Of a DNA stretch of 57,725 nucleotides, positions 5,613 through 57,725 are shown piece after piece. The position numbers and the translations under genes are program-made. The stretch is from the IMG/VR virus record IMGVR_UViG_3300044974_001269, positions 1 to 57,725 of that record. The stretch is one strand, 5' to 3'. Each line of letters begins with the position of its first letter. Within the stretch, counting starts at the first letter, position 1. The notes under the pieces are model-generated. The model was not told where the DNA came from, made no database searches, and saw only the letters and a list, made by a program, of their open reading frames with translations. This DNA is from a virus.

Positions 5613-7517
5613 TTAAATTTTTACAAATGGTTTAGTTATTCTTTCATTATTATTCGCCATCACTAACAAATATTTACCTTGTGCTAGATTTTTGGCGTTA
5701 ATGGCTCTTGTGATTACGTTTGTAAACTCATCGGTTTTGAAATCTCCTAAATCCAAAACCTTTCTTCCGTTGTAATCATAAACATAACCCTTCATCCAAT
5801 AATTATTCGGAAATGTAACAGTTAATTCAAATTGTCCCGAATTTGGATTTGGTCTGATTTCTGCAATAGGCTTCGTTACGGCTAATACTGGCCCTGCCGC
5901 TCTATAAGTTAAAACTATTCTTTCAGATGCTAATTCAATATTGAAATGTTCACCTTCAGAATTGGAGGCGTCCATTAGTTGTCTAACAAAAACATAAGAA
6001 GAAATATCTTCCGAAGGGTCAATTGGCGTAAATTTTAAATTAAAGGGGGTGGATAAACCACTTATCCCCCCCTTTTTTTGATTATTCATTCCACCGAATC
6101 TGATGATTCCATTTTGGTCATCATGAGTTACATATTGTAACCACTCATTCGGAACTTTTGATATTATTTCTGCGAATCTAACTTTTGTTGGGTCATATTT
6201 CATTTCGAATTGTAATCCATAATTTACTAGTCCGTTTGTGGATACATTAAATGGTACAAACATGGGTTGACCTACAGAATATGAGTTCGGAATATTAACA
6301 GAATATCTTCCAGTATAAACAGGACCTCTTACAAGGTTCCCGTTTGCGTCATAAACAGGTGAAGAGTGACTTCTGTCAACATCTCCTTGTACATAATATT
6401 TCAAATCTAATGACAAATTAGAAGTAAGAACCGTATCTAGTACGAAATTTTGTCTACTTGTATAAGTTGTCCAATCTGACCACTGATTTGTACCTAAAGC
6501 CAAACTATCAAACTCGTTTTTGGTGAAAACTTTAATCAAGTTATTTGTTGCAATCGGTCTAAGTCCAGAAACGGAAGCGTAAATACCATAAGGGTCACCA
6601 CCATCAAACTTTTGGTTCCAATTTATATCTGCAATCAAATATGCCAACCCATTTTGTAAATGAGTGCGAGGGTAAGTTTGAGAAATGTCAGCGTTTACAA
6701 ATTCGTTGAACGCTTTTACTGCGTCAGTAACAGTAACTGAATTGTCTCTAATTGAAACTAAACTATCAGGATTGAATCTTAATTCGATTTTATACCTTGT
6801 GTTTTCATCGATATTATCCAAAACATATAAACCTGTGTTTATATCTGGAACTGTAGTTGAAACAAGATTTCCTGTTGCATTTTCATAACAATATAATGTC
6901 GGAACCCAACCTCTTGTAATCACTGATGGTGGAAGCCAAACCTTACCTGAAATTGTAAGGTTTCCAAGTAATTTCACTGCGAGTTTGTTATAATTCAAAA
7001 CCGCCACGTTGTCTCCAATTGTTGTTCCGTCAACTTTGAACATTCTTGCCCAATTAAGGGTTACAGTATCTGATACGAAGTTTGGAATTACGTTGTTAAT
7101 TCTATATTTGTTGTGAATTATGTAACCATTAGAGGAAACCTGTGAACCATTTGATAAAACCAAATAGTTTCTTGCTATAGTCCAGTTTGTATCGGACACA
7201 TAAGTGTAATTTCCACTTGAGTAGGATTGATATTTGTAATCATCCCAACTTCTGTAGGAAATTTCGGGACCGTTTCCACTAACCGCAGCGTCAACAGTTG
7301 TGGATATGTGTGTAAAAAGTCGTTTTTTATATTGCCAGTCCACTTGAAAACTTCTCACATCCGTACCAGTCGCTGGTTTGTAATACCAAGCAACATCTAA
7401 CGTGTCACCTCTCCTTACAGTTTTCAATTGTTGGAAGTGACCGATTTCTGGTGTTTGTGAAAAACCTAAAAATGGGAATGACAATAATGAAATAAATGCC
7501 AATAATTTTTTCATCAT
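5613..7517 (-). CDS. secreted cohesin/dockerin-like protein with T9SS sorting domain
   Basis: 634 aa. Signal peptide at residues ~1-20. Beta-rich N-terminal half. Residues ~265-390 hold a dockerin-like module (ADINWNQKFDGGDPYGIYA, LRPI, GDVDRSHSS) homologous to the lectin protein's C-terminus. Residues ~405-510 look cohesin-like: SYSVGQPMFVPFNVS, then YGLQFEMKYDPTKVRF. The last ~80 residues are a type A T9SS C-terminal domain: IRPNPNSGQFELTVTFP, GYVYDYNGRKVLDL, LAQGKYLLVM, ending KPFVKI. T9SS exists only in Bacteroidota and relatives; it exports cargo across the outer membrane and usually anchors it. A phage protein with this signal would be carried to the host surface by host machinery. It overlaps the upstream gene by 4 bases. 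Confidence 0.82.
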   Translation of the reverse strand: MMKKLLAFISLLSFPFLGFSQTPEIGHFQQLKTVRRGDTLDVAWYYKPATGTDVRSFQVDWQYKKRLFTHISTTVDAAVSGNGPEISYRSWDDYKYQSYSSGNYTYVSDTNWTIARNYLVLSNGSQVSSNGYIIHNKYRINNVIPNFVSDTVTLNWARMFKVDGTTIGDNVAVLNYNKLAVKLLGNLTISGKVWLPPSVITRGWVPTLYCYENATGNLVSTTVPDINTGLYVLDNIDENTRYKIELRFNPDSLVSIRDNSVTVTDAVKAFNEFVNADISQTYPRTHLQNGLAYLIADINWNQKFDGGDPYGIYASVSGLRPIATNNLIKVFTKNEFDSLALGTNQWSDWTTYTSRQNFVLDTVLTSNLSLDLKYYVQGDVDRSHSSPVYDANGNLVRGPVYTGRYSVNIPNSYSVGQPMFVPFNVSTNGLVNYGLQFEMKYDPTKVRFAEIISKVPNEWLQYVTHDDQNGIIRFGGMNNQKKGGISGLSTPFNLKFTPIDPSEDISSYVFVRQLMDASNSEGEHFNIELASERIVLTYRAAGPVLAVTKPIAEIRPNPNSGQFELTVTFPNNYWMKGYVYDYNGRKVLDLGDFKTDEFTNVITRAINAKNLAQGKYLLVMANNNERITKPFVKI

Positions 7518-26965: not shown

Positions 26966-26991
26966 AGAAGGGTTATTTACCCTTCTTTTTT
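26966..26991. terminator. convergent bidirectional terminator
   Basis: GAAGGGT/ACCCTTC stem, A run on the left and T run on the right; serves the 413-aa gene and clpP. Confidence 0.8.
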
Positions 26992-27653
26992 GTTTTAACT
27001 ACTTCATCGATTATTCCGTATTCCACAGATTCTTCTGCTGTTAACCAGAAATCTCTTGAGGCGTCTTCTGTGACTTGTTCGGACGTTTTTCCACAGAACT
27101 CACCTAACAACTCGAATAAAATTTTATTCGTTTTTTCCCACTCTATGAAGTTTATACGAGCGTCTTGAATATTTCCACCAGCACCACCTGAAGTTTGGTG
27201 TAACATGGTCTTTGAAAATCTCAAAGAAGAACGTTTACCTTTTGTTCCGGCGCCTAAAAGAACCGAACCCATAGATGCCGCCATACCTGTGTTTACTGTT
27301 CTGATATCGCATGAAATATATTGCATCACGTCAACCATAGAAAGACCTGATTTAACACTACCACCGGGTGAGTCGATATGCATAGTTATATCAGATTTAT
27401 CGGAAGAGTCCAAAAACATCAATTGTGCTTGAACAATTGTGGACATACGGTCATCAACGGGTCCCGCAACCCATAAAAGTCGGTCTCTCATCAAACGAGA
27501 GAAAATGTCCATTTGAGTAACACGTAATTCTCTTTCTTCTAAAATGTAGGGTGTCATTGAAGATTCAATCTTCAAACCTTCATAATGTAAATCGAGAGAG
27601 TTTTTACCGAGGTGTTTAACGTAGTAGTTCTGAAATTCTTTTCCAATTTCCAT
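26973..27653 (-). CDS. clpP: ATP-dependent Clp protease proteolytic subunit ClpP
   Basis: 226 aa. Complete ClpP: catalytic Ser in MAASMGSVLL (~127), His in SKTMLHQTSGG (~152) and Asp in DASRDFWLT (~200), with the 25-residue Ser-His spacing of E. coli ClpP. The IDSPGGSVKSGLSMVD region is intact. The N-terminus is ~30 residues longer than mature bacterial ClpP (MEIGKEFQNYYVKHLGKNSL), possibly a propeptide. It forms the degradation chamber with a Clp ATPase; a ClpC-like partner with an IGF loop is at the right edge of the window. It has its own host-type promoter. Confidence 0.95.
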   Translation of the reverse strand: MEIGKEFQNYYVKHLGKNSLDLHYEGLKIESSMTPYILEERELRVTQMDIFSRLMRDRLLWVAGPVDDRMSTIVQAQLMFLDSSDKSDITMHIDSPGGSVKSGLSMVDVMQYISCDIRTVNTGMAASMGSVLLGAGTKGKRSSLRFSKTMLHQTSGGAGGNIQDARINFIEWEKTNKILFELLGEFCGKTSEQVTEDASRDFWLTAEESVEYGIIDEVVKTKKKGK

Positions 27654-27700: not shown

Positions 27701-28326
27701 ATATCATCAGCAATTTCTTGAGACGAAAGTTCGGTCCATTTTCTCGGGTGTTGATAAGACCAAAAAGTCTTCCAATTACCAAACCAAATTAAATCTTTTT
27801 TTCTGGTGTCTAAAGTTCTAAAGTCAGTGCTGTCTTTTGGAAATCTTCCGATGTTATACGTTTTATATACATCTATGTATGGAATGTTATAGTAAGTGAT
27901 AAAAGATTTATTTATGTCATCGAAAGGAGTTTCTACAATTGGAGTACAACCATGGATTCTAACATATTCTTGAACTCTTTTTACCCAAAGTTTGCATTCC
28001 TCATAACTTTCGGTTTTCAAAATAAATCGAACTAATTTACCGTAATCATTGAATCGGTGTGAAAAAATCCTGTTCATACCGTGTTCAGGAACATATTTGT
28101 ATATAAGAATTTCCCAATCACCATAAAATTCTATAGGTAGTTTGAAATATGGACAAAAAGATTTTTTGGGAGATATAGGATAAGACTCTACTGTGTATGG
28201 AGTTTCATCATTTTGAAGATACTCTTTGACTTCGACGTAGTAAGATTCGTCAGGACCTGACATTCTAACAAGAATACCTTTATCGAAATTATAAATTATA
28301 CGTTCATTATTCAGTGCTATATACAT
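27685..28326 (-). CDS. hypothetical protein downstream of carbamoyltransferases
   Basis: 213 aa. Starts inside the end of the carbamoyltransferase gene (20-base overlap), so they are translated together. Soluble, aromatic-rich; FGDWEILIYKYV-type strands (YGDWEILIYKYVPEHGMNRI), then ECKLWVKRVQEYVRIHGCTP and a C-terminal LIWFGNWKTFWSYQHPRKW. No named domain. Genetic coupling suggests it handles the same substrate as the carbamoyltransferases. Confidence 0.65.
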   Translation of the reverse strand: MYIALNNERIIYNFDKGILVRMSGPDESYYVEVKEYLQNDETPYTVESYPISPKKSFCPYFKLPIEFYGDWEILIYKYVPEHGMNRIFSHRFNDYGKLVRFILKTESYEECKLWVKRVQEYVRIHGCTPIVETPFDDINKSFITYYNIPYIDVYKTYNIGRFPKDSTDFRTLDTRKKDLIWFGNWKTFWSYQHPRKWTELSSQEIADDILGLS

Positions 28327-29899
28327 AATCCTCTATGACTAATTTATCAATTATTTTTTTATTTAGAGCTCTGAAGGCTTGATTTGGATTTTCAATAATA
28401 GGTTCGTTGTGAGAATTAAAAGATGTATTCAATAAAACAGGAATTCCTGACAATTTATAATACTCGTTCAAAATTTCCCAAAACTTAGGTAAATTATCTT
28501 TGACAACAATTTGTGGTCTAGCAGTTTTATCAGATTTTTGAATTACGGCAGGAATTTCACTTATCCATTCCTCTTTCGTTGAATAACATAACGTCATGAA
28601 TTCTGATGTATATTTTGATTTTGAACAGGTGAAAATTTCATCAAATTTTTCTTCCAAAACGATGGGTGCGAAAGGCATTGTTTCGTATCTATTTAACCTT
28701 TGATTCAAAATACCATGTGTTCCTACATCTGTGGGACGTACTAAAATACTTCTTGCCCCCAAAGCTCTTGGACCGTGTTCAGAACCTCCTTGGAACCAAC
28801 CAATTATTTTACCTTCATTCAAATCTTTAGCAATTTCCTCTACATTATATGGTGATTTGAAAAAATTGTAGTTTTTAGAAATATTTGAAATTTTTTCATT
28901 TGTATAAGAGGGTCCTAACAATACGTTTTTGAGTTTTTTAGGTAATGGCCATTCACCAAGTTCATGTGACTTTTTTATGCAAGCACCTAATGCTAAACCC
29001 TCATCTCCCATAGGAGGAATTACGTAAATTTCTTCAACCCAATCCAATTCGTTTATCTGTTGATTGAGTTTTACATTGGCAAATAAACCACCCGCAAAAC
29101 AAAATTTTTTGTAATCAGGATAAAGTAAATGTAAGTCTTCGATAAAACGTAACATTAAGTCGTTAGTAAGTTTTTGAAGATTGTAACAGTATATTTCTCT
29201 TTTTTCTTTTGTAGAAAAATAACCGTCCTTGAACATCATATCACAAACAAATTTTGTTTTCCACGCTGTTGTTGTTGGATAGAAGTTTAAATTTTTATAA
29301 TTGATGAGGGAATTTAAAACATCATAAATTTTTTGGTCGAAATGACCATCTGCTGCCATTCCCATAAGTTTTCCTTCATCTTTACACATTCTCCAAATCC
29401 CTTCATTATATGCATCATAACCCATAATAGAGGACGTGCTAAAACCCCACAAATGAGACAAACTACCACAAGAATTATATGGGTATTGTCTCAAAAGTTG
29501 CATTTTTCCATCTTCACATAAATAAATTTTCATTACTGTATTTTCTCCACCTCCATCGTAAGTAATGGTAATTACTTTACCCATCATACCACTTGTGAAA
29601 TAAGCTCCGTAGGCATGAGCATCGTGATGAGAACATTTTTCGTAATCTAAATCTGTAATTTCTTTTACATATTTTTCACTAACAGGTGCGGCAAAAACTC
29701 TGTAATCTGAATTTTCAACTTTATAACCTGTGGTTTCTTCAATTTTCTTTGTAGATAAAAGTGCAGAGGTCTCATGTATGTCACCAGCTTTTTTTCTTGA
29801 CATTCTTTCTTCTTCTAATGCTGATACTATTTCGCCGTCTTTTACAACCGCACAACAACCACTATGTGAACCACAATAAAAACCAAAAATTAAACTCAT
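28307..29899 (-). CDS. carbamoyltransferase (NodU/CmcH family), copy 2
   Basis: 530 aa. N-terminal ASKHA-type ATPase-like domain: FYCGSHSGCCAVVKDGEIVS, ALEEERMSRKK, the metal-site HHDAHAYGAYFTSG and TITYDGGGENTVM. C-terminal domain: WFQGGSEHGPRALGARSILV and MPFAPIVLEE. Family members transfer carbamoyl from carbamoyl phosphate (via carbamoyl-adenylate) to hydroxyls of sugars, antibiotics or hydroxymethylated bases. Overlaps the upstream paralogue by 4 bases (ATGA). Substrate unknown. Confidence 0.9.
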   Translation of the reverse strand: MSLIFGFYCGSHSGCCAVVKDGEIVSALEEERMSRKKAGDIHETSALLSTKKIEETTGYKVENSDYRVFAAPVSEKYVKEITDLDYEKCSHHDAHAYGAYFTSGMMGKVITITYDGGGENTVMKIYLCEDGKMQLLRQYPYNSCGSLSHLWGFSTSSIMGYDAYNEGIWRMCKDEGKLMGMAADGHFDQKIYDVLNSLINYKNLNFYPTTTAWKTKFVCDMMFKDGYFSTKEKREIYCYNLQKLTNDLMLRFIEDLHLLYPDYKKFCFAGGLFANVKLNQQINELDWVEEIYVIPPMGDEGLALGACIKKSHELGEWPLPKKLKNVLLGPSYTNEKISNISKNYNFFKSPYNVEEIAKDLNEGKIIGWFQGGSEHGPRALGARSILVRPTDVGTHGILNQRLNRYETMPFAPIVLEEKFDEIFTCSKSKYTSEFMTLCYSTKEEWISEIPAVIQKSDKTARPQIVVKDNLPKFWEILNEYYKLSGIPVLLNTSFNSHNEPIIENPNQAFRALNKKIIDKLVIEDYVYSTE

Positions 29900-31566
29900 G
29901 TAGGTCTTTTGATTAAAAAATTATTTATGACTAAATAATCTAACTTTCTATTGATAGTTGTTGCTATCGCGTCTGAAGGGGTCTCAACTATCGGTTCGGA
30001 AGGTCCGTTGAAACTTGTGTTCAAAAGGACTGGTACCCCTGTTCTTTCGTAAAAACTTGAAATTAATTCGTAGAATTTGGGGTTAGATTCTTGTGTCACA
30101 GATTGGTGTCTCGCAGAGTTATCAATGTGAACAACTGATGGGATTTTTTCTCTCCATTCCTCTTTCACCTCTGTTGTGACGAGCATAAATGGTGAATAAA
30201 CAGAAGATTCAAAAATTTCAGATTGATGTTCGAATAAAACGGCAGGTGCGAAGGGTCTGTACCACTCTCTACCTTTTATGTCCGAATTGATATGTCCAAT
30301 CATCCATTTAGTTATTGGTGAAGCAATGATTGACCTATTACCTAAAGCTCTTGGTCCGATTTCTGAACCCCCTTGAAACCAACCTATAACTCTATTCTGA
30401 GTGAGCCAATGAGAAACTTCATTTATAAGGTCTGAGAAATTTTCATATTCTTTGAATTCAATTTCAGGATGATTATTGAGTGCCAATAAAATTTCCCCCC
30501 TTTCGTATGATTTACCAAAATATGGGTTAATCAAAGAAGTTTCAGAGATATCGGTAATTTGTTGATATCCATACCACGCACAACCTAAAGGTATTCCTGA
30601 GTCATCAGAAGGTGGTAAGAAAAAACAATTTTTATATAAACCAGATTCTAAAATTAATTGATTGGAGTTACAATTCAAAAAAGAACCGCCAGCAACACAA
30701 ACATTATCAGAATTGGTAAACTTTTTTGCTAATTTTGCCAATATTAGGGAGGATTTTTCTTGCCCTTTTTGGTACATACCTGCGACACATGCTCTTGAAA
30801 AAAAGTCAGATTTCCAAGTAACCTTCGGATAGATAAAATTGTTATAAATTCTAATATCATCCTCTAATTCTTCCACAAAGCTGGGACCCTCGTCAACAAT
30901 ACTTTGGTCTGCAAAAGAGGCTAAACCCATCAGTTTTCCAGCACTCCAAGTATGTGTCTTTTCTTCGTAAACCAATTGTAAAGTTGCTTCAGCATAAACT
31001 GTACCTAATGAGACGTCATCATTGGTTGCCCAAGGTGTGGGAAATTTTATCCACTTTTTGTAAATCTCTTCGTAAGAATTTTTTTTGAAATGATAAATTG
31101 ATATTCCTTCTGCCCAATCTTGATTAGGGTCTAAAGACCATTTTTTTGGGTCGTACCATTTGTGTGTTGTATTCTTGTAAGATATTACACTCCCTGATGC
31201 GTCTGCAACAATTACTGCTGCTTCATCAAATCCTGAACTAAAAAAAGTTGAATAAGCGTGAGCTAAATGGTGAGGTATAAACAATAAATTTTCTCTTTTC
31301 AAGTTAGGAAAAACTCTGAAAAATTTTTCGGGAGCATCATCAATTATTTCAGTTGTTGAATATACCCAAAGGTTGATGTCTTGATGTGAAATTCCTAATG
31401 CATTCAAACAATAATTTATTGACTCAAGTGGGATTAGTCCCCCTTGGTAAGCACCGTCATGTTTGATGCGTGACAAACGTTCTTGAGTAATACCCACAAG
31501 AACTTTACCATTTTCAATTATTACCGCACCTTTATCATGACCTACTGAGAAGCCTAATACTTTCAT
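29896..31566 (-). CDS. carbamoyltransferase (NodU/CmcH family), copy 1
   Basis: 556 aa, same family as the next gene: FSVGHDKGAVIIENGKVLVG, ITQERLSRIKHDG, HHLAHAYSTFFSSGFDEA, VIVADASGS, and the C-terminal WFQGGSEIGPRALGNRSIIA with RPFAPAVLFEH. The two copies are diverged, which suggests two acceptors or a heteromeric enzyme. Third of six genes in the operon that starts with the HNH nuclease at 32637. Confidence 0.9.
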   Translation of the reverse strand: MKVLGFSVGHDKGAVIIENGKVLVGITQERLSRIKHDGAYQGGLIPLESINYCLNALGISHQDINLWVYSTTEIIDDAPEKFFRVFPNLKRENLLFIPHHLAHAYSTFFSSGFDEAAVIVADASGSVISYKNTTHKWYDPKKWSLDPNQDWAEGISIYHFKKNSYEEIYKKWIKFPTPWATNDDVSLGTVYAEATLQLVYEEKTHTWSAGKLMGLASFADQSIVDEGPSFVEELEDDIRIYNNFIYPKVTWKSDFFSRACVAGMYQKGQEKSSLILAKLAKKFTNSDNVCVAGGSFLNCNSNQLILESGLYKNCFFLPPSDDSGIPLGCAWYGYQQITDISETSLINPYFGKSYERGEILLALNNHPEIEFKEYENFSDLINEVSHWLTQNRVIGWFQGGSEIGPRALGNRSIIASPITKWMIGHINSDIKGREWYRPFAPAVLFEHQSEIFESSVYSPFMLVTTEVKEEWREKIPSVVHIDNSARHQSVTQESNPKFYELISSFYERTGVPVLLNTSFNGPSEPIVETPSDAIATTINRKLDYLVINNFLIKRPT

Positions 31567-36486: not shown

Positions 36487-37008
36487 ATGAGACGGAAAAT
36501 TATTTTCATAGATGTTGATGGTCCTTTATCTTGGGGAACATGGGGTGATGGAAAAGTTACGCTCAACTGTGGCTCCGAACTATTCAAGATGCCTTATCCA
36601 TGGGTAGAAGAAGATTGCCAAGCTCTCCGTAAAATTCTCGACGAAAGTAATGCTAAATTAGTTTTGAGTTCTGATTGGAAAAAACATTTTAGTTTCAGAC
36701 AAATGAAAACTATCTTCGAACGATATGGTATGTCAGGTCACCACCTTATCGATACAACTACTCATCAGGATTTATGGACAAAATTGAGTAGACCCTCTAT
36801 TGATTGGGAAAGAGCTGCAGAGATTGTGAAGTGGGTAAAGGATAATAAGATTTCCAATTGGATTGCGATTGATGACCTTAATTTAGCAAACGAGTTCAAA
36901 TGGATGAAGATACCACAATGGAGACATGTACAGGTTGATGGAGATTGGGGACAAGGTGGTAGACTCAGAGATAAAATTGATGAATGTATAAAAAAACTTG
37001 AAAGATGA
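36487..37008 (+). CDS. HAD-like phosphatase/5'-nucleotidase-type protein, 173 aa
   Basis: N-terminal IIFIDVDGPLSWG gives the DxD motif of HAD enzymes; LVLSSDWKK is motif II (S) and WIAIDDLNL the acidic motif III/IV. Matches the HAD family found near nucleic-acid repair genes in phages. Its ATG shares bases with the tRNA-Ile tail, so it is transcribed with the tRNAs. Likely acts on nucleotides or RNA/DNA ends; substrate not certain. Confidence 0.75.
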   Translation: MRRKIIFIDVDGPLSWGTWGDGKVTLNCGSELFKMPYPWVEEDCQALRKILDESNAKLVLSSDWKKHFSFRQMKTIFERYGMSGHHLIDTTTHQDLWTKLSRPSIDWERAAEIVKWVKDNKISNWIAIDDLNLANEFKWMKIPQWRHVQVDGDWGQGGRLRDKIDECIKKLER

Positions 37009-47990: not shown

Positions 47991-50900
47991 TTAGTTTCCG
48001 AATGTGTATCTCAAACCAAGTTGTGCTTGCCATACGTCAAACACAGAAGAGTTCCACTGATAAGTGTCCTTGATAAGTGAAGTAGAACCGTCGTAGTTTC
48101 TCTGTGTAGATAATCTATAGACAGGTTCGCCTGCTGTGTTGATTGATGAATAGCTAAGGATTGCTGGGTTTGTTGCTCTTTGAGAAACACCCCAATCATT
48201 ATTCAACATGTTTCCGAAGTTGAGGATATCTAAACGAATTTGGAAATTGTTGTTGATACCTTTTACTTTCACTACGAAATCTTGTTGAACTGAAAGGTCA
48301 AATCTGTGAAGAACAGGGATTGTAGAAGCGTTTCTCTCAGCGTATTGTCCTCTTCTTGTGGAGAGGTATTTGTCTTGAGCGATGTAAGCTTCAAAAGCCG
48401 CTTGTTGTTCAGCTTCTGTGAATGTGTAACTTCCAAGAGTACCATTTGGTAATCTTACTCCTGATGCTGTGAAAGATGCGAATTTGATATCAGAACCTTT
48501 TTGAGGAACGAAAATCATTTCGTTGTTGTTTACTCTATCACCGTTGAGGTCACCAGCTACGAAATAACCGAAAGGATTACCTTGTTGTCCTACATAACCT
48601 AATGTGATTGTTGTAGCACCAGCACCTTTCTTTGCACCGTTTTCAATCTTGTAACCGAGAAGTCCAACAAATCTGTTTGGAATCCAGTTATCAGAGAATG
48701 AAAGAGGTAAGTCGTTATTTCCGTTGATTGACCTTGCACTCTGCCAAGAACCTGATGCGATTGAACCCGCACTCATGTAATCTTTAGCCATAGATGTTGT
48801 CCAAGCCATAGAACCCCAAAGACCCTTTTGTGCAGGGTATTTAAGTTCAAATGTTGCTGAACGGAAGTTAGCACCGTTTCTGTTTGTTAAAACAGCTGCC
48901 ATAGATACGTTGTCATTTACTCTGACACCAGCATCGTTTCTTGCGAATAGAGCTCTTTTGTCAGGACCTTGTAAAGTTCCCACAGGAACATCAAGGTTTG
49001 CGTTGTAGTAATGAACAGCGTTTAAAAATCTGTTGTAAAGAAGTTCCACAGTACCTACAAAACCATAAGGTAGTTTTTGGTCTACCGCCAAGTTTGATTT
49101 CCATACTTGAGGGAATTTGTAGTTAGGGTCTGTGAAAGCTAAATCAAACGTAGAAGGAAGTGTTGGAGTTGAAGGAATGAAGTATTGGTTTGGATTTGCA
49201 GTGAAACCGTAGTTTGCCGCCGCCGCACCTGATACATCAATAAATCCTGTCAATACACCGTTGTTTCCTACTTGGTTTGATACAAACACATAAGGAGGTC
49301 TACCTGTGAAAATACCTGTACCACCTCTTACTTGTGTTTTGTTCTGACCTTTGTGGTTGTAATTAAATCCAAATCTTGGTTCCCACAAAAGTTGTGTCTT
49401 TGGAAGTGTACCTGTATTGAATTTTTCACCACCAGCGAAAGTCATTGCAGTTACTGCAGCGTTTTCAATTGCGGTATTCTCAAATCCAATTACAGCAACT
49501 CTCAGACCACCAGTGAGTTTCAAATTTTGAGTATACTGATACTCATCTTGAACATAAAGGTCAAGACGTGATGTCTTTAACACTTGCATAGGTTCAATAC
49601 CACCAGGAAGAGCTGAATATCTCAACTGAAATCTCGCTGGTGCAAGTGTTGAAGGTATTCCACCGTTTGCTAATGATTGATTAGCTGCTGTGTAGAAATC
49701 TGCAAGTGAATTGAAGATATACACACCGTTTGAAGCGGGGAAGAATAAGTTGTTAGAACGATATTTTTCAAAATTAACACCAGCAACCACTGTGTGCTTG
49801 TCCATAAACTTGGTCAAGTTGTTTGTGATGTGGAAAGTGTTATAATCCAACTTATTACCTGGTGTGAATGGGTCGAAACCTACTGATGTGTAAGTTGCAT
49901 TACCATTCATAATGTCAATAGTTGGAAACATTTGTGAAAGATACGCTCTGTTCTCAATTTGTTTGTCATAACCAACAATCAAGTTGTTATGTAAAGTGTT
50001 AGAAAACTTACTATTCAATTCCAATACACTTGAACGAGTGTTGTCCATAATGATGTATCCACTGTTCTTAAATGACATTGCGTTGAACTGAGTAGTTCTG
50101 TTTCCTGCACCTGCAGATTGAGAGTTTGAGATGTTGATTTCAGCGTCAGAGTTGTGCCAAACATAACGAGCAGTCAATTTGTGTTTGTCGTTAATGTTCC
50201 AGTCAGCTCTTACGAGAAATTTCTCAGATTTGTTTGCGTTGTTGTACCCTTCCCAAGGACCCGTCTCATAATTGAAATTTGTTCTCATGTAATCAGAAAG
50301 TGTCTTCATATCAGAGTAAAGAACTCTTGATACTTGTGACCCTGTGAGAGGAGAACCTGTTGAAATCCAAGTTGTACCTGGTTCAGTTCTTTCCAAAGTT
50401 TCGTAGTTTCCGAAGATGAACAATTTGTTCTTGATAATCGGAGCACCAAGTCTGAAACCTCTCATAGTTTCTTCAAACTTCGAAGCAGTTACAGTAGTTC
50501 CTTTTGCGTTGTTTCCAACATAACGGACGTTGTCTCTGCTTGACTGATAATAAGAACCATCAATTTTGTTCGTACCACTTCTTGTGACTGCGTTGATACC
50601 AGCACCAACGAAACCACTTTGACGAATGTCAAACGGTGCTACGTTGATTTGAAGTTGGTCAATCGCATCCAAAGAAATCGCAGTGGAACCTGTTCTACCA
50701 CCAGCTTGTGCTGAAGAACCAAGACCGAAACCGTTGTTGAATTGAGAACCGTCGATAGTGAAATTGTTTAATCTACTATCAGCAGCACCAAAAGAACGAC
50801 CATCACCCATTGGATTGTACTTGGTGATTCCGTCGATAGTTCTAGCACCTGTGATGGGAACTGAAGTAAGTTCTCTTCTACCAAATTGCTGAGACGCACC

Positions 50901-51296
50901 AGTTCTATCCTTACTGAATGTGTTGTTTCTGTTTGAACCGACAACTACTTCAGACAAGGTCTTAACATCAGAAATCAACACAATTTCCAAGGTGGTTGTA
51001 ATACCGAGGTTTGTGTTAATGTCAGTGAGTTCTTGTTTTTTGTAGCCAACGTTAGAAACGCTAATCACATAAGGACCACCTGGACGCACAGCAGGAATGG
51101 TAAATGTACCAACTTTGTTTGTAGTTGAACGATAAACCGAACCTGTTGGTTGGTGAACCGCTTCAACTGACGCTCCCACTAAAGCATCTCCTTTTTCATT
51201 TTTCACTACACCAGACAGGGCAGAAGTTGTGATTTGCCCGAAAGATGCAAGCGTCACGAATAAGGATAAAAGTGACGTCATGATTGTTTTTTTCAT
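47991..51296 (-). CDS. Oar-type TonB-dependent outer-membrane receptor
   Basis: 1101 aa from ATG 51296, chosen because it gives a signal peptide (MKKTIMTSLLSLFVTLASFG). Residues ~25-110: carboxypeptidase-regulatory-like domain (ALSGVVKNEKGDALVGASVE, YVISVSNVGYKKQELTD). Residues ~125-250: plug domain (VVVGSNRNNTF, GARTIDGITKYNPMGDG, RLNNFTIDGSQFNNGFGL, GINAVTRSGTNKIDGSYY). The rest is a 22-strand-type barrel ending WQAQLGLRYTFGN. Complete and uninterrupted. It is visibly less AT-rich (about 42% GC in sampled lines against under 30% elsewhere), which suggests recent transfer from a host. Such receptors import large substrates and serve as phage receptors. Confidence 0.9.
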   Translation of the reverse strand: MKKTIMTSLLSLFVTLASFGQITTSALSGVVKNEKGDALVGASVEAVHQPTGSVYRSTTNKVGTFTIPAVRPGGPYVISVSNVGYKKQELTDINTNLGITTTLEIVLISDVKTLSEVVVGSNRNNTFSKDRTGASQQFGRRELTSVPITGARTIDGITKYNPMGDGRSFGAADSRLNNFTIDGSQFNNGFGLGSSAQAGGRTGSTAISLDAIDQLQINVAPFDIRQSGFVGAGINAVTRSGTNKIDGSYYQSSRDNVRYVGNNAKGTTVTASKFEETMRGFRLGAPIIKNKLFIFGNYETLERTEPGTTWISTGSPLTGSQVSRVLYSDMKTLSDYMRTNFNYETGPWEGYNNANKSEKFLVRADWNINDKHKLTARYVWHNSDAEINISNSQSAGAGNRTTQFNAMSFKNSGYIIMDNTRSSVLELNSKFSNTLHNNLIVGYDKQIENRAYLSQMFPTIDIMNGNATYTSVGFDPFTPGNKLDYNTFHITNNLTKFMDKHTVVAGVNFEKYRSNNLFFPASNGVYIFNSLADFYTAANQSLANGGIPSTLAPARFQLRYSALPGGIEPMQVLKTSRLDLYVQDEYQYTQNLKLTGGLRVAVIGFENTAIENAAVTAMTFAGGEKFNTGTLPKTQLLWEPRFGFNYNHKGQNKTQVRGGTGIFTGRPPYVFVSNQVGNNGVLTGFIDVSGAAAANYGFTANPNQYFIPSTPTLPSTFDLAFTDPNYKFPQVWKSNLAVDQKLPYGFVGTVELLYNRFLNAVHYYNANLDVPVGTLQGPDKRALFARNDAGVRVNDNVSMAAVLTNRNGANFRSATFELKYPAQKGLWGSMAWTTSMAKDYMSAGSIASGSWQSARSINGNNDLPLSFSDNWIPNRFVGLLGYKIENGAKKGAGATTITLGYVGQQGNPFGYFVAGDLNGDRVNNNEMIFVPQKGSDIKFASFTASGVRLPNGTLGSYTFTEAEQQAAFEAYIAQDKYLSTRRGQYAERNASTIPVLHRFDLSVQQDFVVKVKGINNNFQIRLDILNFGNMLNNDWGVSQRATNPAILSYSSINTAGEPVYRLSTQRNYDGSTSLIKDTYQWNSSVFDVWQAQLGLRYTFGN

Positions 51297-51315
51297 GTTT
51301 GTTTTGTTTATTGGT

Positions 51316-51327
51316 TTATAAATAAAA
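51316..51327 (-). promoter_or_regulatory. TATTTAT-box promoter candidate (receptor)
   Basis: Minus-strand TTTATTTATAAA, 19 bp before ATG 51296. The leader that follows (CCAATAAACAAAACAAAC) is almost the same as that of the 149-aa gene. Confidence 0.5.
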
Positions 51328-51329
51328 AA

Positions 51330-51354
51330 TCCCGAAGACAGGGCGTCAACGGGA
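51330..51354 (-). terminator. hairpin before receptor promoter
   Basis: TCCCG/CGGGA arms followed on the minus strand by ATTTTTTATTTATAAA; terminator-promoter fusion. The stem is short. Confidence 0.5.
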
Positions 51355-51507
51355 CTATTGTATTTTTCTGAGTTGATAAAGTAATACAGTCGATATAAAA
51401 AATTCATATAAAAAATCTCCCCAACTTTCATAATTAGCCCTCGAAATACAAAAAACCCAATCGACTGAACAAACTTAATAATTTCTTAATTGAAAATCAA
51501 TAGGCGA

Positions 51508-52637: not shown

Positions 52638-53036
52638 TGGTGGAGAAGACGGGAGTCGAACCCGTTTCTTGTTCGCGATGACTATAAGTGACTACACGTT
52701 TATTACAACATTGTTTCTCAATGTTCCGAAATATTAAGTTTGATATATGTGGGAACCAAACTTACAAACAACCTGGTCTCAGAGTTATTTTAAAGGAGCT
52801 CTGACCTGTGACCCCTATAACGGACTTCTGTTCCTAGGTTTTATGTCCTTCCCGACCCGAATATTGAGTTCTTAATTCAATTAAGCCTCAACAACAGCTT
52901 CCTCAGCAATTAGACCGAGAGCAGCCATTTTAGCAAAAGTATTGCCAGTTGTGTTTCGAACCAGTTTTTAAGGAGTTAATTCAGCTCCTACGTGCCACCT
53001 ATACCCACACACGCCAATCAATGCCGTGACTTCCCC
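52638..53036 (-). ncRNA. ssrA: tmRNA (transfer-messenger RNA)
   Basis: 399 nt on the minus strand. The tRNA-like ends pair: GGGGAAG at the 5' end with CTTCTCC, then A and an encoded CCA (52638-52640); T-arm ACGGG-TTCGACT-CCCGT. The 5' end has no normal anticodon arm. The tag frame at 52946-52881 begins at GGC and encodes 21 residues starting GNTFAKMAAL and ending EEAVVEA, then TAA and a second in-frame TAA. Pseudoknot-like pairs follow. It rescues stalled ribosomes and tags the product. The tag end VVEA differs from the usual (A)LAA. Confidence 0.93.
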
Positions 53037-53100: not shown

Positions 53101-54141
53101 ATGGGTAAGTTTGATTTTTTTATTGGTCTGAAAAACTTCATTACGGGAAAAATTGATAAAAGTGATTTGATAGGTTTGGATGATAAAATTTATAAAATCG
53201 AAACCACAAGAGACGGAAAATCTATTATTTTTTACGATTTCGATTATGACTCTAATGTCTTAGAAAATGCCGGATACACGCAAGATGATATTTCAGTTTA
53301 TTCCAACATGACATCTCACTATGGTAATAGTTATGAATTTTACTCAGATTATAGCGGGATGGAGGATTTCGAATCAGGTTACGGTCCTTGGAATGAACTT
53401 GATGACGATAATTGGGAAAAATTAAAATACATTTCTCATTTCCTCATGAAGGAGCCTTTTTCTATGGACAATAGTTTTTTGGAAAGGTTTGCAAATAAAT
53501 TACTCAACACTTTCCCAACAGAAACAAAAGAAATAGTCTACGACTACTCAAGAGAAAGAAATGAACAGATAAGCAATTCCGTAGCGGAACACGTTGAAAA
53601 AGAAGTAAAAGAATTTTTTGAAACAATTCCTGTAAAATTTGTTGGAGATGGAATAGTTTCGGTTGATGCAAGAGAAGTATTCGATTACTACGTAGAGAGT
53701 GGAAATCTTAATTTTCCTCTCGGAAAAATTATTAAAGGAATAATGCGAAAAGGGGAACCTATGGGTGGATGGTCTGAAAATATTTGGGAATATGAAAACG
53801 ATGAAGGTTTTGATAAAATTTACTATAATAAAGAGGTTGAGAAAGAACTCGACAGTATTATAGATAAATTGACTGAAAACGAAGAAGAAGCCAGAAAATT
53901 CACTTCGATGGTAGAAAGGGTCAGTAGAAAATTCAAACAAGGAACATGGTTTCCTTTACCAAAAGATAAATCAAACTCTGTAAGGTTTAGAATTGACGGT
54001 TTTGATTTTCCATCTCAAAAATTGGTTGTGAGTCTTCAAAAAGAACTCAAAAGGAAAGAATTCAAAATGACCGAAGAGAACTTCTATAATTTACTTTATC
54101 AACCTGAATTATTTAAAATTGGAGAATTACACGATTTTTAA
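53101..54141 (+). CDS. hypothetical protein, 346 aa
   Basis: Starts MGKFDFFIGLKNFITGKI. Acidic and aromatic-rich N-terminal half (TSHYGNSYEFYSDYSGMEDF), long helices around 150-190 and 240-290 (SNSVAEHVEKEVKEFFETIP, ELDSIIDKLTENEEEARKF). No signal, membrane helix or known motif. Possibly structural; no evidence for an enzyme. Confidence 0.6.
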   Translation: MGKFDFFIGLKNFITGKIDKSDLIGLDDKIYKIETTRDGKSIIFYDFDYDSNVLENAGYTQDDISVYSNMTSHYGNSYEFYSDYSGMEDFESGYGPWNELDDDNWEKLKYISHFLMKEPFSMDNSFLERFANKLLNTFPTETKEIVYDYSRERNEQISNSVAEHVEKEVKEFFETIPVKFVGDGIVSVDAREVFDYYVESGNLNFPLGKIIKGIMRKGEPMGGWSENIWEYENDEGFDKIYYNKEVEKELDSIIDKLTENEEEARKFTSMVERVSRKFKQGTWFPLPKDKSNSVRFRIDGFDFPSQKLVVSLQKELKRKEFKMTEENFYNLLYQPELFKIGELHDF

Positions 54142-54153
54142 TATCTTTGTGTA

Positions 54154-54981
54154 ATGAACCAAAATTTAGAACTACTTAAAGAAGTTTTATCCGTACCCAC
54201 CTCTACTTATAACGAAGATTTGATGATTTCATATCTTCAAAAATGGTTGGACGAAAAAAATATTCCAAATTATACTGATAGTCATGGCAACGTTTATGCA
54301 ACAAAAAAAATTCAAGAAGTACCTGATGATTTTTATTATCCTTGCGTTATATCTCATACTGATACTGTTCACGGATTGGGGAGTATAAATGTTCATGAAG
54401 AACAACTGCCAAACGCACAAGGTGAGACAAAACTATCTCTCAAGGCTTATGATGACAAAGGTAAACCAACAGGGATTGGAGGGGATGATAAATGTGGTGT
54501 TTTTGCTTGTTTAACTCTACTCGAAGAACTCCCTTACTTGAAAGCGGCATTTTTCGTTTCTGAAGAAACTGGATGTCATGGTTCGAGAAAAGCGGACAAA
54601 TCATTCTTTCATGATGTGGGTTATGCAATTCAATTTGACGCACCAGAAAACTGGATGATTACAGAAAAATGTTTCGGTCATGTTTTGTTTGACAGAGACA
54701 CTGATTTTTTCAAAAGTTGTGATGAGGTTCTCTGTGAGGGAATGAATGCTGACTACATGAGATACATGGTTCATCCTTATACTGATGTCTATGCTTTAAG
54801 AAGTCAATTTGATTTTTCTTGTATCAATTTTTCAATTGGATATTACGATTACCACACAAAAGACGAATACGTCGTGGTTGAAGATGTTTTCAATGGAATT
54901 AAAATGGGTAAAAAGATGATTGAGAAATTGGGAAATAAACTTCACTATAAAGCACTTGCTACAGATTGGAGATACGCTTAA
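54154..54981 (+). CDS. M20/M42-like zinc peptidase
   Basis: 275 aa. Zinc-site motifs in order: VISHTDTVHG (HxD), GGDDKCGVFACL (bridging Asp), FFVSEETGCHGSRKAD (Glu pair) and INFSIGYYDYHTKDEYVVVE near the C-terminus (His). Matches peptidase-T/M20-type deacylases without the dimerisation domain, hence short. Likely cleaves small peptides or amide metabolites in the cytoplasm; might supply amino acids. Overlaps the convergent metallopeptidase gene by 4 bases. Confidence 0.8.
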   Translation: MNQNLELLKEVLSVPTSTYNEDLMISYLQKWLDEKNIPNYTDSHGNVYATKKIQEVPDDFYYPCVISHTDTVHGLGSINVHEEQLPNAQGETKLSLKAYDDKGKPTGIGGDDKCGVFACLTLLEELPYLKAAFFVSEETGCHGSRKADKSFFHDVGYAIQFDAPENWMITEKCFGHVLFDRDTDFFKSCDEVLCEGMNADYMRYMVHPYTDVYALRSQFDFSCINFSIGYYDYHTKDEYVVVEDVFNGIKMGKKMIEKLGNKLHYKALATDWRYA

Positions 54982-55730
54982 AAGAGATTTTCTAAATTCT
55001 TAAGAAACGGTTTAACTACGGGGTGGTCTTGTATGTCATCATACTTTTCACCCCTTCTTTTCATTTGTTTAATTTCTTCTGTTATTTTTCTGAGATTTTG
55101 TTCAATCATTTTGGACATAGATGGGTAATTCACAATATATGGTGATAGTACAAGTTCTTTTTTAGCAATATCCATAGGAATTCCCAAATCTCTTACTAAT
55201 TTTGCAACCATATTTTTTGCAAATTGGTCTGCGTCGAGTTCCATCTCCCAATATTGTTTGTATAGGTTTTCGAAATCTTCGAGGTCAAAATCACTCAAAG
55301 GGTTTGACATTTTTATTTTAGAAATTTGAGACTCGTGTCTCATTTCGTGAAAGAGAGTATAAATAAAATCACCAAGTGTTTGCATCTCGTTGGGTGAACA
55401 GATAATAATTTGGTCTTTGGTTCTTACACCACTGAAACCTGTGTAACAAGATTTTAATAATTTAATTTTAAAACCATTTTTAGAAATATATTTAATGATA
55501 AAATCTTTTATAATGTCGAGTTTATCAACATATTGTGCAGGAAATTTAGTTTTGAATTGGTCAAAAATTGTATCTAAATTAGATTTTGGTGTGTTATCAT
55601 GACCACATTTGTGACAAACGTATTTGTCTTTACCACCATCAGATAAATCCCAACTCCAACCACAACTATCACAAATGACTTTGCCGTCTTTGATTTCTTC
55701 TTTAATAAGTCTTTTGATTAAATCTCTCAC
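54978..55730 (-). CDS. zinc-ribbon + HExRH metallopeptidase with leader-like N-terminus
   Basis: 250 aa from GTG 55730. N-terminal helix MRDLIKRLIKEEIKDG (IKE site). Residues ~20-46: zinc ribbon CDSCGWSWDLSDGGKDKYVC then HKCGHDN, a module very common in phage virion proteins. Residues ~120-180: zincin site FHEMRHESQ (HExxH-like HEMRHE) and downstream YWEMELDADQFAKN supplying the third ligand. Unknown substrate. Sits between ClpC and the M20-like gene. Confidence 0.78.
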   Translation of the reverse strand: MRDLIKRLIKEEIKDGKVICDSCGWSWDLSDGGKDKYVCHKCGHDNTPKSNLDTIFDQFKTKFPAQYVDKLDIIKDFIIKYISKNGFKIKLLKSCYTGFSGVRTKDQIIICSPNEMQTLGDFIYTLFHEMRHESQISKIKMSNPLSDFDLEDFENLYKQYWEMELDADQFAKNMVAKLVRDLGIPMDIAKKELVLSPYIVNYPSMSKMIEQNLRKITEEIKQMKRRGEKYDDIQDHPVVKPFLKNLENLF

Positions 55731-55744
55731 AATATTAAATATAA

Positions 55745-55770
55745 AAAAAAGGGGATTAAATCCCCTTTTC
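55745..55770 (-). terminator. terminator after clpC-like gene, fused to next promoter
   Basis: AAAGGGGAT/ATCCCCTTT stem then TTTTTTTATATTTAATATTGTG on the minus strand, which runs into the start of the 250-aa gene. Confidence 0.85.
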
Positions 55771-57725
55771 AGTTTTTGATTTTTTTACGAGTTTAATTTC
55801 CTCGTCTTGAAGTTTCAATTCATAGGATTTGTTTTCTAAAACATTTCCTGTTAGTACTTCTTCGGAAATCAAATCTTCGATTTTGTCTTGGATTGCTCTT
55901 TTGAGAGGTCTTGCCCCATAAATTTCGTCAAAACCGACTTTTGCTAGATAGTCAACAATGGTCTCATCAAAAGAAATTTTGTACTTGATTTCCTTCAATC
56001 TTTCAACCAATTTATTCAATTCGATTGAGGTAATTTTTTTGATATGTTCCTCGTTGAGTGTGTTGAACACAATCGTATCATCAATACGGTTTAAGAACTC
56101 GGGTGAAAAGAAATTTTTCATTTCTTTGAGTAACGTTTGTTTTTTTGCTTCTTCATTACCATACTGATTGGTGAAACCAATGCCAGAACCGAAGTCTTGA
56201 AGTTTCTTAACACCTAAATTGGTTGTAAGAATAATTAGGGTGTTTTTGAAATTGATTTTTCTTCCGAGACTATCTGTAACGTGACCATCATCCATCATTT
56301 GGAGAAGAATTGTGAAAACGTCTTTATGTGCTTTTTCTACCTCATCGAACAAAATTACGGAGTAAGGTTTGTTTTTCACTTTCTCTGTGAGTTGTCCACC
56401 CTCCTCATATCCAACATAACCTGGAGGAGCACCAACTAATTTGGATACAGTGTGTTTTTCTTGATATTCACTCATATCTACACGAATAAGTGATTCTTCT
56501 GACCCGAAAATTTCTTTTGCTAACTGTTTCGCTAAGTGAGTTTTTCCGACACCAGTTGAACCCAAGAAAATAAAACTACCGATTGGACGATTTGGGTCTT
56601 TGATTCCAAGTCTATTTCTCTTAATAGATTTAACAATCTTTTTGACTGCCTCATCTTGACCAATAACCTTACCCATCAATTCTTTATCCAAATTGAGCAA
56701 ATTTTTGGTGTCATCGATGGTCATTTTACTAACGGGGATTTTGGTCATATTTGAAACGACATCATAAACATTTTCAAGAATAACAATTTGTTTTTGTTTT
56801 TCCATTTCGTCATCAAACTTTTTCTTCTCGGAGTCTAACTTGTCCAAAAGTTTTTTCTCCTTGTCACGAAGTTGTGCTGCCTGCTCATAATTCTGTTTTT
56901 TTACAACATCGATTTTTTGTTGTTTGATTTCTGCCGCTTTCTTTTTCAAGTCCTCAATTACTTCCGGTATTTTCACTTCAGTTTGCATTCTGGCACCCAC
57001 TTCATCCAAGATATCAAAAGCTTTATCGGGGAATTCTCTGTCTGTGATATATCTTTCAGCGAGTTTCACACAGGTTTCAATTATTTCATCTGAATATTTC
57101 ACTTTGTGGAACGACTCATATTTTGGTCGAATATTCTTTAGAATTTCAATTGTTTCTTGAACTGAAGATGGTTCAACAATCACTTTCTGAAATCTTCTTT
57201 CAAGCGCTCCGTCCTTTTCAATATTTTTTCTGAATTCGTCTAAGGTTGTTGCACCGACAACTTGAATTTCTCCTCTCGAAAGGGCGGGTTTGAAAATGTT
57301 TGAACCGTCCATAGAACCGGCAGAATTACCTGAACCCACGAGTGTGTGAATTTCATCAATGAATACAATAATGTTTGGATTATCCTGTAATTCTTCAATG
57401 ATTACTTTCATCCTTTCTTCGAACTGTCCACGGTACTTGGTACCAGCAACCACAGAGGTCAAATCTAAATTGACAATTCTTTTATCAATTAAGTTTTTAG
57501 GACAATTCCCTTGAACAATCTTGATTGCTAAACCTTCCACGATTGCAGTTTTACCACAACCAGGTTCACCCACAATGATAGGGTTATTCTTTTTTCTACG
57601 AGATAGAATTTGAGCAATCCTCATAATTTCTCTATCTCTTCCAATTACAGGGTCAAGTTTACCCTCTTCGGCAAGTTTATTTAGGTCCCGACTGAAATTA
57701 TCTAACACAGGTGTGTTACTATCAG
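55756..57725 (-). CDS. clpC: ClpC-like AAA+ unfoldase (partial)
   Basis: At least 656 aa; the frame is still open at the window edge and reads [20 protein letters not shown] there, so the Clp_N domain lies outside. D1: Walker A GEPGCGKT and Walker [19 protein letters not shown]-type coiled segment follows ([17 protein letters not shown]), diagnostic of ClpC over ClpB and ClpA. D2: [30 protein letters not shown], and a [11 protein letters not shown] segment whose IGF is the ClpP-docking loop. So it should feed substrates to ClpP, encoded at 26973. Confidence 0.93.

What the first reader, a model, noticed from the sequence alone, without database searches (positions are those of the whole stretch)
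52638..53036. tmRNA with an unusual tag, together with ClpP and a ClpC-like unfoldase
Seen: a complete tmRNA whose tag (21 codons, GNTFAKMAAL...EEAVVEA) ends in VVEA rather than ALAA; a ClpP with full triad (26973-27653); and a ClpC-like ATPase with an IGF ClpP loop (55756-57725). Known: host tags ending in LAA are read by ClpXP/ClpAP. Inference: the phage may run its own rescue-and-degrade route whose degron is read by the phage unfoldase and not by host ClpX, or it uses a tag that spares proteins from host proteases.
Basis: partly seen in the sequence, partly recalled or inferred. Interest (0 to 1): 0.85.

Follow-up and report, generated by a model that had tools for sequence, protein, structure and literature searches.

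The report
Phage tmRNA with its own tag
A group of giant lake viruses that probably infect Bacteroidetes bacteria carries its own ribosome-rescue RNA, which adds an unusual 21-residue tail not ending in the common bacterial 'LAA', beside genes for its own protein-shredding machine, suggesting a private route for tagging and recycling failed proteins.

Summary
A complete one-piece tmRNA lies at 52638-53036(-) (ARAGORN; Rfam 82.5 bits). Its tag, GNTFAKMAALGLIAEEAVVEA, is in the only consistently open frame and starts four bases below the conserved A. It is not a one-off: 59 distinct tmRNAs of one huge-phage clade encode 20-22-residue tags of the same family (55 exactly 21; consensus GNTFAKMAALGL[TI][RA]E[EA][AV]VVxA). 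None ends in LAA; 34 of 40 canonical tmRNAs in other viral contigs end [LIM]AA. The window's 'VEA' is one variant: the penultimate residue is free and VAA is a common ending. The clade (about 290-326 kb, bS21-encoding) matches published freshwater Bacteroidetes phages; neither of two papers on such phages mentions a tmRNA. ClpC, ClpP and tmRNA occur together in all five near-complete genomes. ClpC and tmRNA are neighbours, same strand, in 28 of 30 loci. This ClpC naturally lacks the N-terminal adaptor domain but keeps the ClpP loop; an M20/PepT-like peptidase and an HExxH protein lie between. SmpB was not found, so host SmpB is probably borrowed. Best reading: a phage-specific rescue-and-degrade module read by its own ClpC-ClpP. 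Degradation and host evasion are untested; host ClpXP may also read these tails.

The parts
52638..53036 (-). one-piece tmRNA (ssrA)
   Evidence: ARAGORN; Rfam RF00023 82.5 bits; 36 of 70 consensus pairs with compensatory changes and G3.U70 in 24/24 relatives
52881..52946 (-). tag reading frame: resume codon GGC (52946-52944), 21 codons, stop TAA (52883-52881)
   Evidence: A at -4 in 59/59; other frames closed
53101..54141 (+). 346-aa protein of unknown function, divergent from the tmRNA, fast-evolving
   Evidence: present beside most clade tmRNAs; no Pfam, PHROG or NCBIfam match; confident model (pLDDT 88) without a PDB match
54154..54981 (+). M20/PepT-like metallopeptidase, 275 aa
   Evidence: PHROG 4191 'peptidase' E 1.4e-34; weak M20/PepT matches; putative metal ligands invariant in 22 relatives
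54978..55730 (-). protein with an HExxH motif (HEMRH), possible metalloprotease
   Evidence: sequence; weak PHROG match of unknown function; present in many clade loci
55756..57723 (-). ClpC-like unfoldase without the N-terminal adaptor domain (about 20 N-terminal residues beyond the window edge)
   Evidence: aligns with S. aureus ClpC from residue 158, E 1.8e-217; relatives 668-695 aa in stop-to-stop frames
56173..56181 (-). IGF loop for docking on ClpP
   Evidence: conserved 31/31
26973..27653 (-). ClpP peptidase, Ser/His/Asp triad context
   Evidence: Pfam PF00574 E 6.7e-57; nearest solved chains are true ClpP; clade ClpPs 78/78 with triad context

Best explanation
The tmRNA is a working phage gene. 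Charged with alanine by the host enzyme and carried by host SmpB, it enters stalled ribosomes, swaps in its own frame and adds Ala plus a 21-residue clade-specific tail (consensus GNTFAKMAALGL..E..VVxA). The tail is a degron read directly by the pore of the phage's N-domain-less ClpC, which docks through its IGF loop on phage (or host) ClpP and degrades the aborted chain; the neighbouring M20/PepT-like peptidase may finish the products to amino acids. Shown: the RNA, its conserved structure, the tag frame, conservation of the tail, gene linkage, and ClpC/ClpP sequence competence. Inferred: expression, tagging, recognition by ClpC, and degradation.
For: Structure and G3.U70 conserved. Tail length and residues conserved in 59 tmRNAs, dN/dS about 0.47. 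ClpC within about 2-4.4 kb on the same strand in 28/30 loci; ClpC present in 32/37 tmRNA-baited records, against 4/40 HSP100 in other tmRNA-bearing viral contigs. tmRNA, ClpC and ClpP in all five records of 286-326 kb. ClpC lacks the N-domain and keeps pore loops and IGF in 31/31. Precedents: S. aureus N-domain-deleted ClpC-R443A degrades GFP-SsrA without adaptor (PMC12521514); Mollicutes paired a non-LAA tag with a different protease, Lon (PMC9382460).
Against: No direct evidence of expression or degradation. The R443-equivalent that represses ClpC is retained. ClpP lies 25 kb away, not in the same cluster. No SmpB found. Many tails end VAA/VVA, so host ClpXP might read them. In one subclade (L241, L221) ClpC is not beside the tmRNA. 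Co-inheritance in one clade need not mean function together.
Confidence: 0.5

Rival explanations
1. The tail is an ordinary degron for the host's ClpXP. The phage tmRNA only raises the dose of ribosome rescue; the phage ClpC and ClpP serve other substrates, such as host proteins.
For: Most tails end in Ala with a small or hydrophobic residue before it (VAA, VVA, VGA). Variants of LAA such as LVA and AAV are used as ClpXP tags in E. coli (PMC9382460).
Against: 0 of 59 tails is LAA although [LIM]AA is usual in other viral-contig tmRNAs; E and K occur at the penultimate position; tight linkage to an N-domain-less ClpC.
Confidence: 0.25
2. Rescue only, or a protective tag: what matters is freeing ribosomes, and the tail lets tagged proteins escape host proteases.
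For: In E. coli, ribosome release alone supports growth of the lambda-immP22 test phage; degradation is not needed (PMC2481249). The window's own tail has Glu before the last Ala.
Against: Residues and length of the tail are conserved, unexpected if only release mattered; unfoldase and peptidase genes are linked.
Confidence: 0.15
3. The tail is chiefly a binding or targeting peptide, recognised by a phage protein such as the neighbouring 53101-54141 product, not a degron in itself.
For: The most conserved tail block is internal (K6, G11-L12), not only C-terminal; the unknown neighbour is usually divergently adjacent to the tmRNA.
Against: No fold or family hint for the neighbour; it evolves much faster than tail or ClpC.
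Confidence: 0.07

Closest known systems
Bacterial one-piece tmRNA (ssrA, RF00023)
   Same: tRNA-like domain with G3.U70, P2, hairpins/pseudoknot region, resume codon four bases below a conserved A, one short frame
   Different: divergent (82.5 bits; some relatives below the Rfam cut-off); tail of 21 residues, no LAA
Phage-encoded tmRNAs (mycobacteriophage Bxz1 group, Bacillus phage G, Melnitz, huge phages; PMC4131195, PMC9004378, PMC7162821)
   Same: complete tmRNA in a phage genome; some huge phages also have SmpB
   Different: here a conserved clade-wide tail family linked to an N-domain-less ClpC and a peptidase; SmpB not found
Mollicutes ssrA tag and Lon (PMC9382460)
   Same: long non-LAA tag associated with a protease other than ClpXP
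   Different: cellular, Lon-based; recognition there is experimental, here inferred
ClpC/MecA/ClpP of Firmicutes (PMC12521514)
   Same: two AAA+ rings, M-domain, R443 equivalent, IGF-type ClpP loop
   Different: phage protein lacks the N-domain to which MecA binds
bS21-encoding freshwater Bacteroidetes phages (PMC9723584) and moraphages (PMC12619734)
   Same: bS21 phages: size, bS21, Clp protease noted, predicted Bacteroidetes hosts; moraphages: ClpA-type ATPase and a putative peptidase among core genes
   Different: neither paper's main text mentions a tmRNA (0 occurrences in each)

Membership tests
tmRNA (RF00023) | covariance-model match over the whole model | tested here: met
   82.5 bits, cut-off 47, positions 1-374
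tmRNA (RF00023) | alanine identity pair G3.U70 | tested here: met
   24/24 relatives
tmRNA (RF00023) | resume codon set by A at -4 and a closed short frame | tested here: met
   59/59
tmRNA (RF00023) | charging and tagging activity | not testable with these tools
   needs experiment
canonical LAA-type ssrA degron | C-terminal LAA | tested here: not met
   0 of 59
ClpC | two AAA+ modules, M-domain, ClpP loop | tested here: met
ClpC | N-terminal Clp_N domain | tested here: not met
   homology starts at residue 158; short leader only. Hence ClpC-like, not typical ClpC
ClpP | family match and catalytic triad | tested here: met
   below NCBIfam equivalog cut-offs, far above the prohead-protease match
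complete trans-translation set | own SmpB | tested here: not met
   none in the window or in four tmRNA-bearing records of 317-326 kb; the only SmpB among 41 records is in a fragment without a detected tmRNA
M20 metallopeptidase | family match and metal ligands | tested here: inconclusive
   ligand pattern invariant, but Pfam M20 just below cut-off and NCBIfam matches weak
bS21 freshwater Bacteroidetes phages | bS21 gene, about 293-331 kb genome | tested here: inconclusive
   bS21 in 10 of 13 relatives, including all five records of 286-326 kb; the window fragment itself has none; TerL phylogeny not tested

The most novel reading that the evidence does not exclude
A viral clade has evolved an orthogonal trans-translation system: its own degron family and an adaptor-free ClpC-ClpP tuned to it, insulated from the host degradation route and feeding a dedicated peptidase, with only SmpB borrowed.
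Probability: 0.25. Interest if true: 0.85.

Novelty: new variant of a known kind. Interest (0 to 1): 0.62.

Why it matters
It gives a concrete, testable answer to why phages carry tmRNA: not merely spare rescue capacity but a tag of their own, possibly with their own protease. If recognition is specific, it adds an orthogonal degron-protease pair and a natural adaptor-free ClpC, and shows viruses rewriting the fate of aborted proteins during infection.

Tried and rejected
Other tag frames: rejected (stops, -4 A rule). Host contamination: rejected (tmRNA and neighbours recur in dozens of viral contigs; the one bacterial hit of a 19-base tmRNA pattern holds no tmRNA). Absence of tmRNA in some relatives (G018, G019, G020, G039): an Rfam sensitivity artefact; a clade profile finds it. 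Nucleotide search of named phages with the tmRNA: only short 3'-end matches. The 634 and 642 kb phages that share ClpC similarity: ClpC-like without an IGF loop, SmpB present, no tmRNA over the Rfam cut-off, so not the same module. Phage proteins with tail-like C-termini in one 317 kb genome: none found, uninformative. Structure of the 53101 protein: confident but no PDB match. Prohead-protease identity for ClpP: far weaker match than true ClpP.

Full report
Observation. ARAGORN and Rfam both call a complete one-piece tmRNA at 52638-53036 on the minus strand. The window is a 57.7 kb linear virus record. The tag frame begins at GGC (52946) and reads GNTFAKMAALGLIAEEAVVEA-stop; ARAGORN's AEEAVVEA is its C-terminal part. 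ClpP and the ClpC-like ATPase are genuine.

Relatives. Scans with the ClpP and with the protein next to the tmRNA brought 86 viral loci. Rfam found tmRNA in 35 of 50 records tested; a profile built from these also found it in G018, G019, G020 and G039, which Rfam had missed, when they were read around ClpC. A tmRNA-only DNA pattern brought 53 matches, many in new contigs. In all 59 distinct tmRNAs were compared.

The tag. 55 of 59 encode exactly 21 residues, two 20 and two 22. Among 43 distinct 21-codon ORFs G11 and L12 are invariant, K6 is 41/43, E15 38/43, V19 38/43 and the last Ala 40/43; the penultimate residue is the freest (A, V, T, G, E, K). None ends in LAA. A lies four bases above the resume codon in 59/59, as expected from the A86 rule (PMC2481249). 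Other frames carry stops. Pooled Nei-Gojobori dN/dS is 0.47 (0.41 for codons 6-21): purifying selection on the peptide, moderate in strength; the estimate is rough because the RNA is itself constrained and pairs are not independent.

The RNA. Of 70 consensus pairs 36 show compensatory changes in at least one sequence, spread over acceptor, T arm, P2 and hairpins, and G3.U70 is present in 24/24. This is the signature of a chargeable, functional tmRNA.

Baseline. A canonical tmRNA pattern in viral contigs gave 40 ARAGORN tmRNAs; 28 end in LAA and 34 in LAA, IAA or MAA. Many are probably prophage or host-derived, so this is a contrast, not a matched control. A separate lineage (L271, L290, L344) has AKNVIAYDFIPVEEEVLVVA or a close variant, so non-LAA phage tags arose more than once. 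Only 4 of these 40 records hold any HSP100 and 2 a ClpP-family match; many of these contigs are short.

Neighbourhood. In 28 of 30 loci examined the ClpC lies upstream on the tmRNA's strand, its near end about 2-4.4 kb away, with the M20/PepT-like gene and, in most loci, the 53101 gene between them on the opposite strand. In the tmRNA-baited set 32 of 37 records hold the ClpC. Of the other five, one is a 4 kb contig, two appear to have the tmRNA near a contig end, and two are fragments from the subclade whose tags begin GNVY; in another member of that subclade (L241, record G051) ClpC is present but not beside the tmRNA. All five records of 286-326 kb (G014, G016, G021, G039, G051) have tmRNA and ClpC, and a ClpP was found in each of them. 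SmpB is absent from G014, G016, G021 and G039 and found in only one of 41 records, a fragment in which no tmRNA was found.

ClpC. The stop-to-stop frames are 668-695 aa in the clade; homology starts at residue 158 of S. aureus ClpC. The N-domain is replaced by a short leader, while both Walker sites, pore loops and the IGF loop are present in 31/31. S. aureus ClpC lacking its N-domain and carrying R443A degrades GFP-SsrA without MecA (PMC12521514). The phage protein is naturally N-domain-less but keeps the R443 equivalent, so it may still be switched.

Peptidase. The 54154-54981 protein aligns with 55-79% identity over 21 relatives, with H68, D70, D111, D112, E137, E138, D162 and H234 invariant, the pattern of M20 di-metal sites (assignment of ligands from general knowledge of the family); family matches are weak apart from PHROG 4191 'peptidase'. 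Its role in trimming Clp products is inference.

Identity of the clade. bS21 is present in 10 of 13 relatives, and sizes fit the published bS21-encoding freshwater phages predicted to infect Bacteroidetes. The window also has a T9SS sorting-domain protein and an outer-membrane barrel, consistent with such hosts. Moraphages, another aquatic lineage, list a ClpA-type ATPase and a putative peptidase among core genes. Neither paper's main text mentions a tmRNA. The tags of the actual hosts were not measured here; that they end in LAA is the general bacterial rule (PMC9382460).

Mechanism. The best-supported reading is trans-translation with a private tail followed by ClpC-ClpP degradation, with host SmpB and alanyl-tRNA synthetase. 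Recognition and proteolysis are inferred. Host ClpXP reading is the main rival, because VAA and VVA resemble LAA. The Mollicutes tag/Lon pair is the precedent for tag and protease changing together (PMC9382460).

Noticed in passing
L271, L290, L344: Another phage lineage has a 20-residue tmRNA tag AKNVIAYDF[IT]PVEEEVL[VA]VA, also acidic then V-rich and ending VA; looks convergent.
   Followed up: partly
L006 (LR756508.1, 92434-92880): A 484 kb phage has a tmRNA whose likely tag is 35 residues ending KPAAV, and its own N-domain-less ClpC with an IGF loop; a possible independent case.
   Followed up: partly
LR745206.1 and LR756502.1 (L018, L019): 634 and 642 kb phages encode SmpB and several ClpPs, but no tmRNA passed the Rfam cut-off and their ClpC-like protein lacks the IGF loop.
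   Followed up: partly
tmRNA 3' domain, alignment: The region after the tag occurs in two or more unrelated-looking forms that do not follow the tag type, as if pseudoknot modules were exchanged.
   Followed up: no
28307-31566(-): Two adjacent carbamoyltransferase genes beside ClpP.
   Followed up: no
5613-7517(-) and 47991-51431(-): A protein with a T9SS sorting domain and a large outer-membrane beta-barrel in a phage contig, pointing to a Bacteroidota host.
   Followed up: no
36487-37008(+): HAD domain of the Swiss Army Knife RNA-repair kind inside the tRNA cluster (14 tRNAs in the window), possibly tRNA repair.
   Followed up: no
Rfam RF00023 misses real tmRNAs of this clade; phage tmRNA counts made with standard tools are probably too low.
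   Followed up: yes
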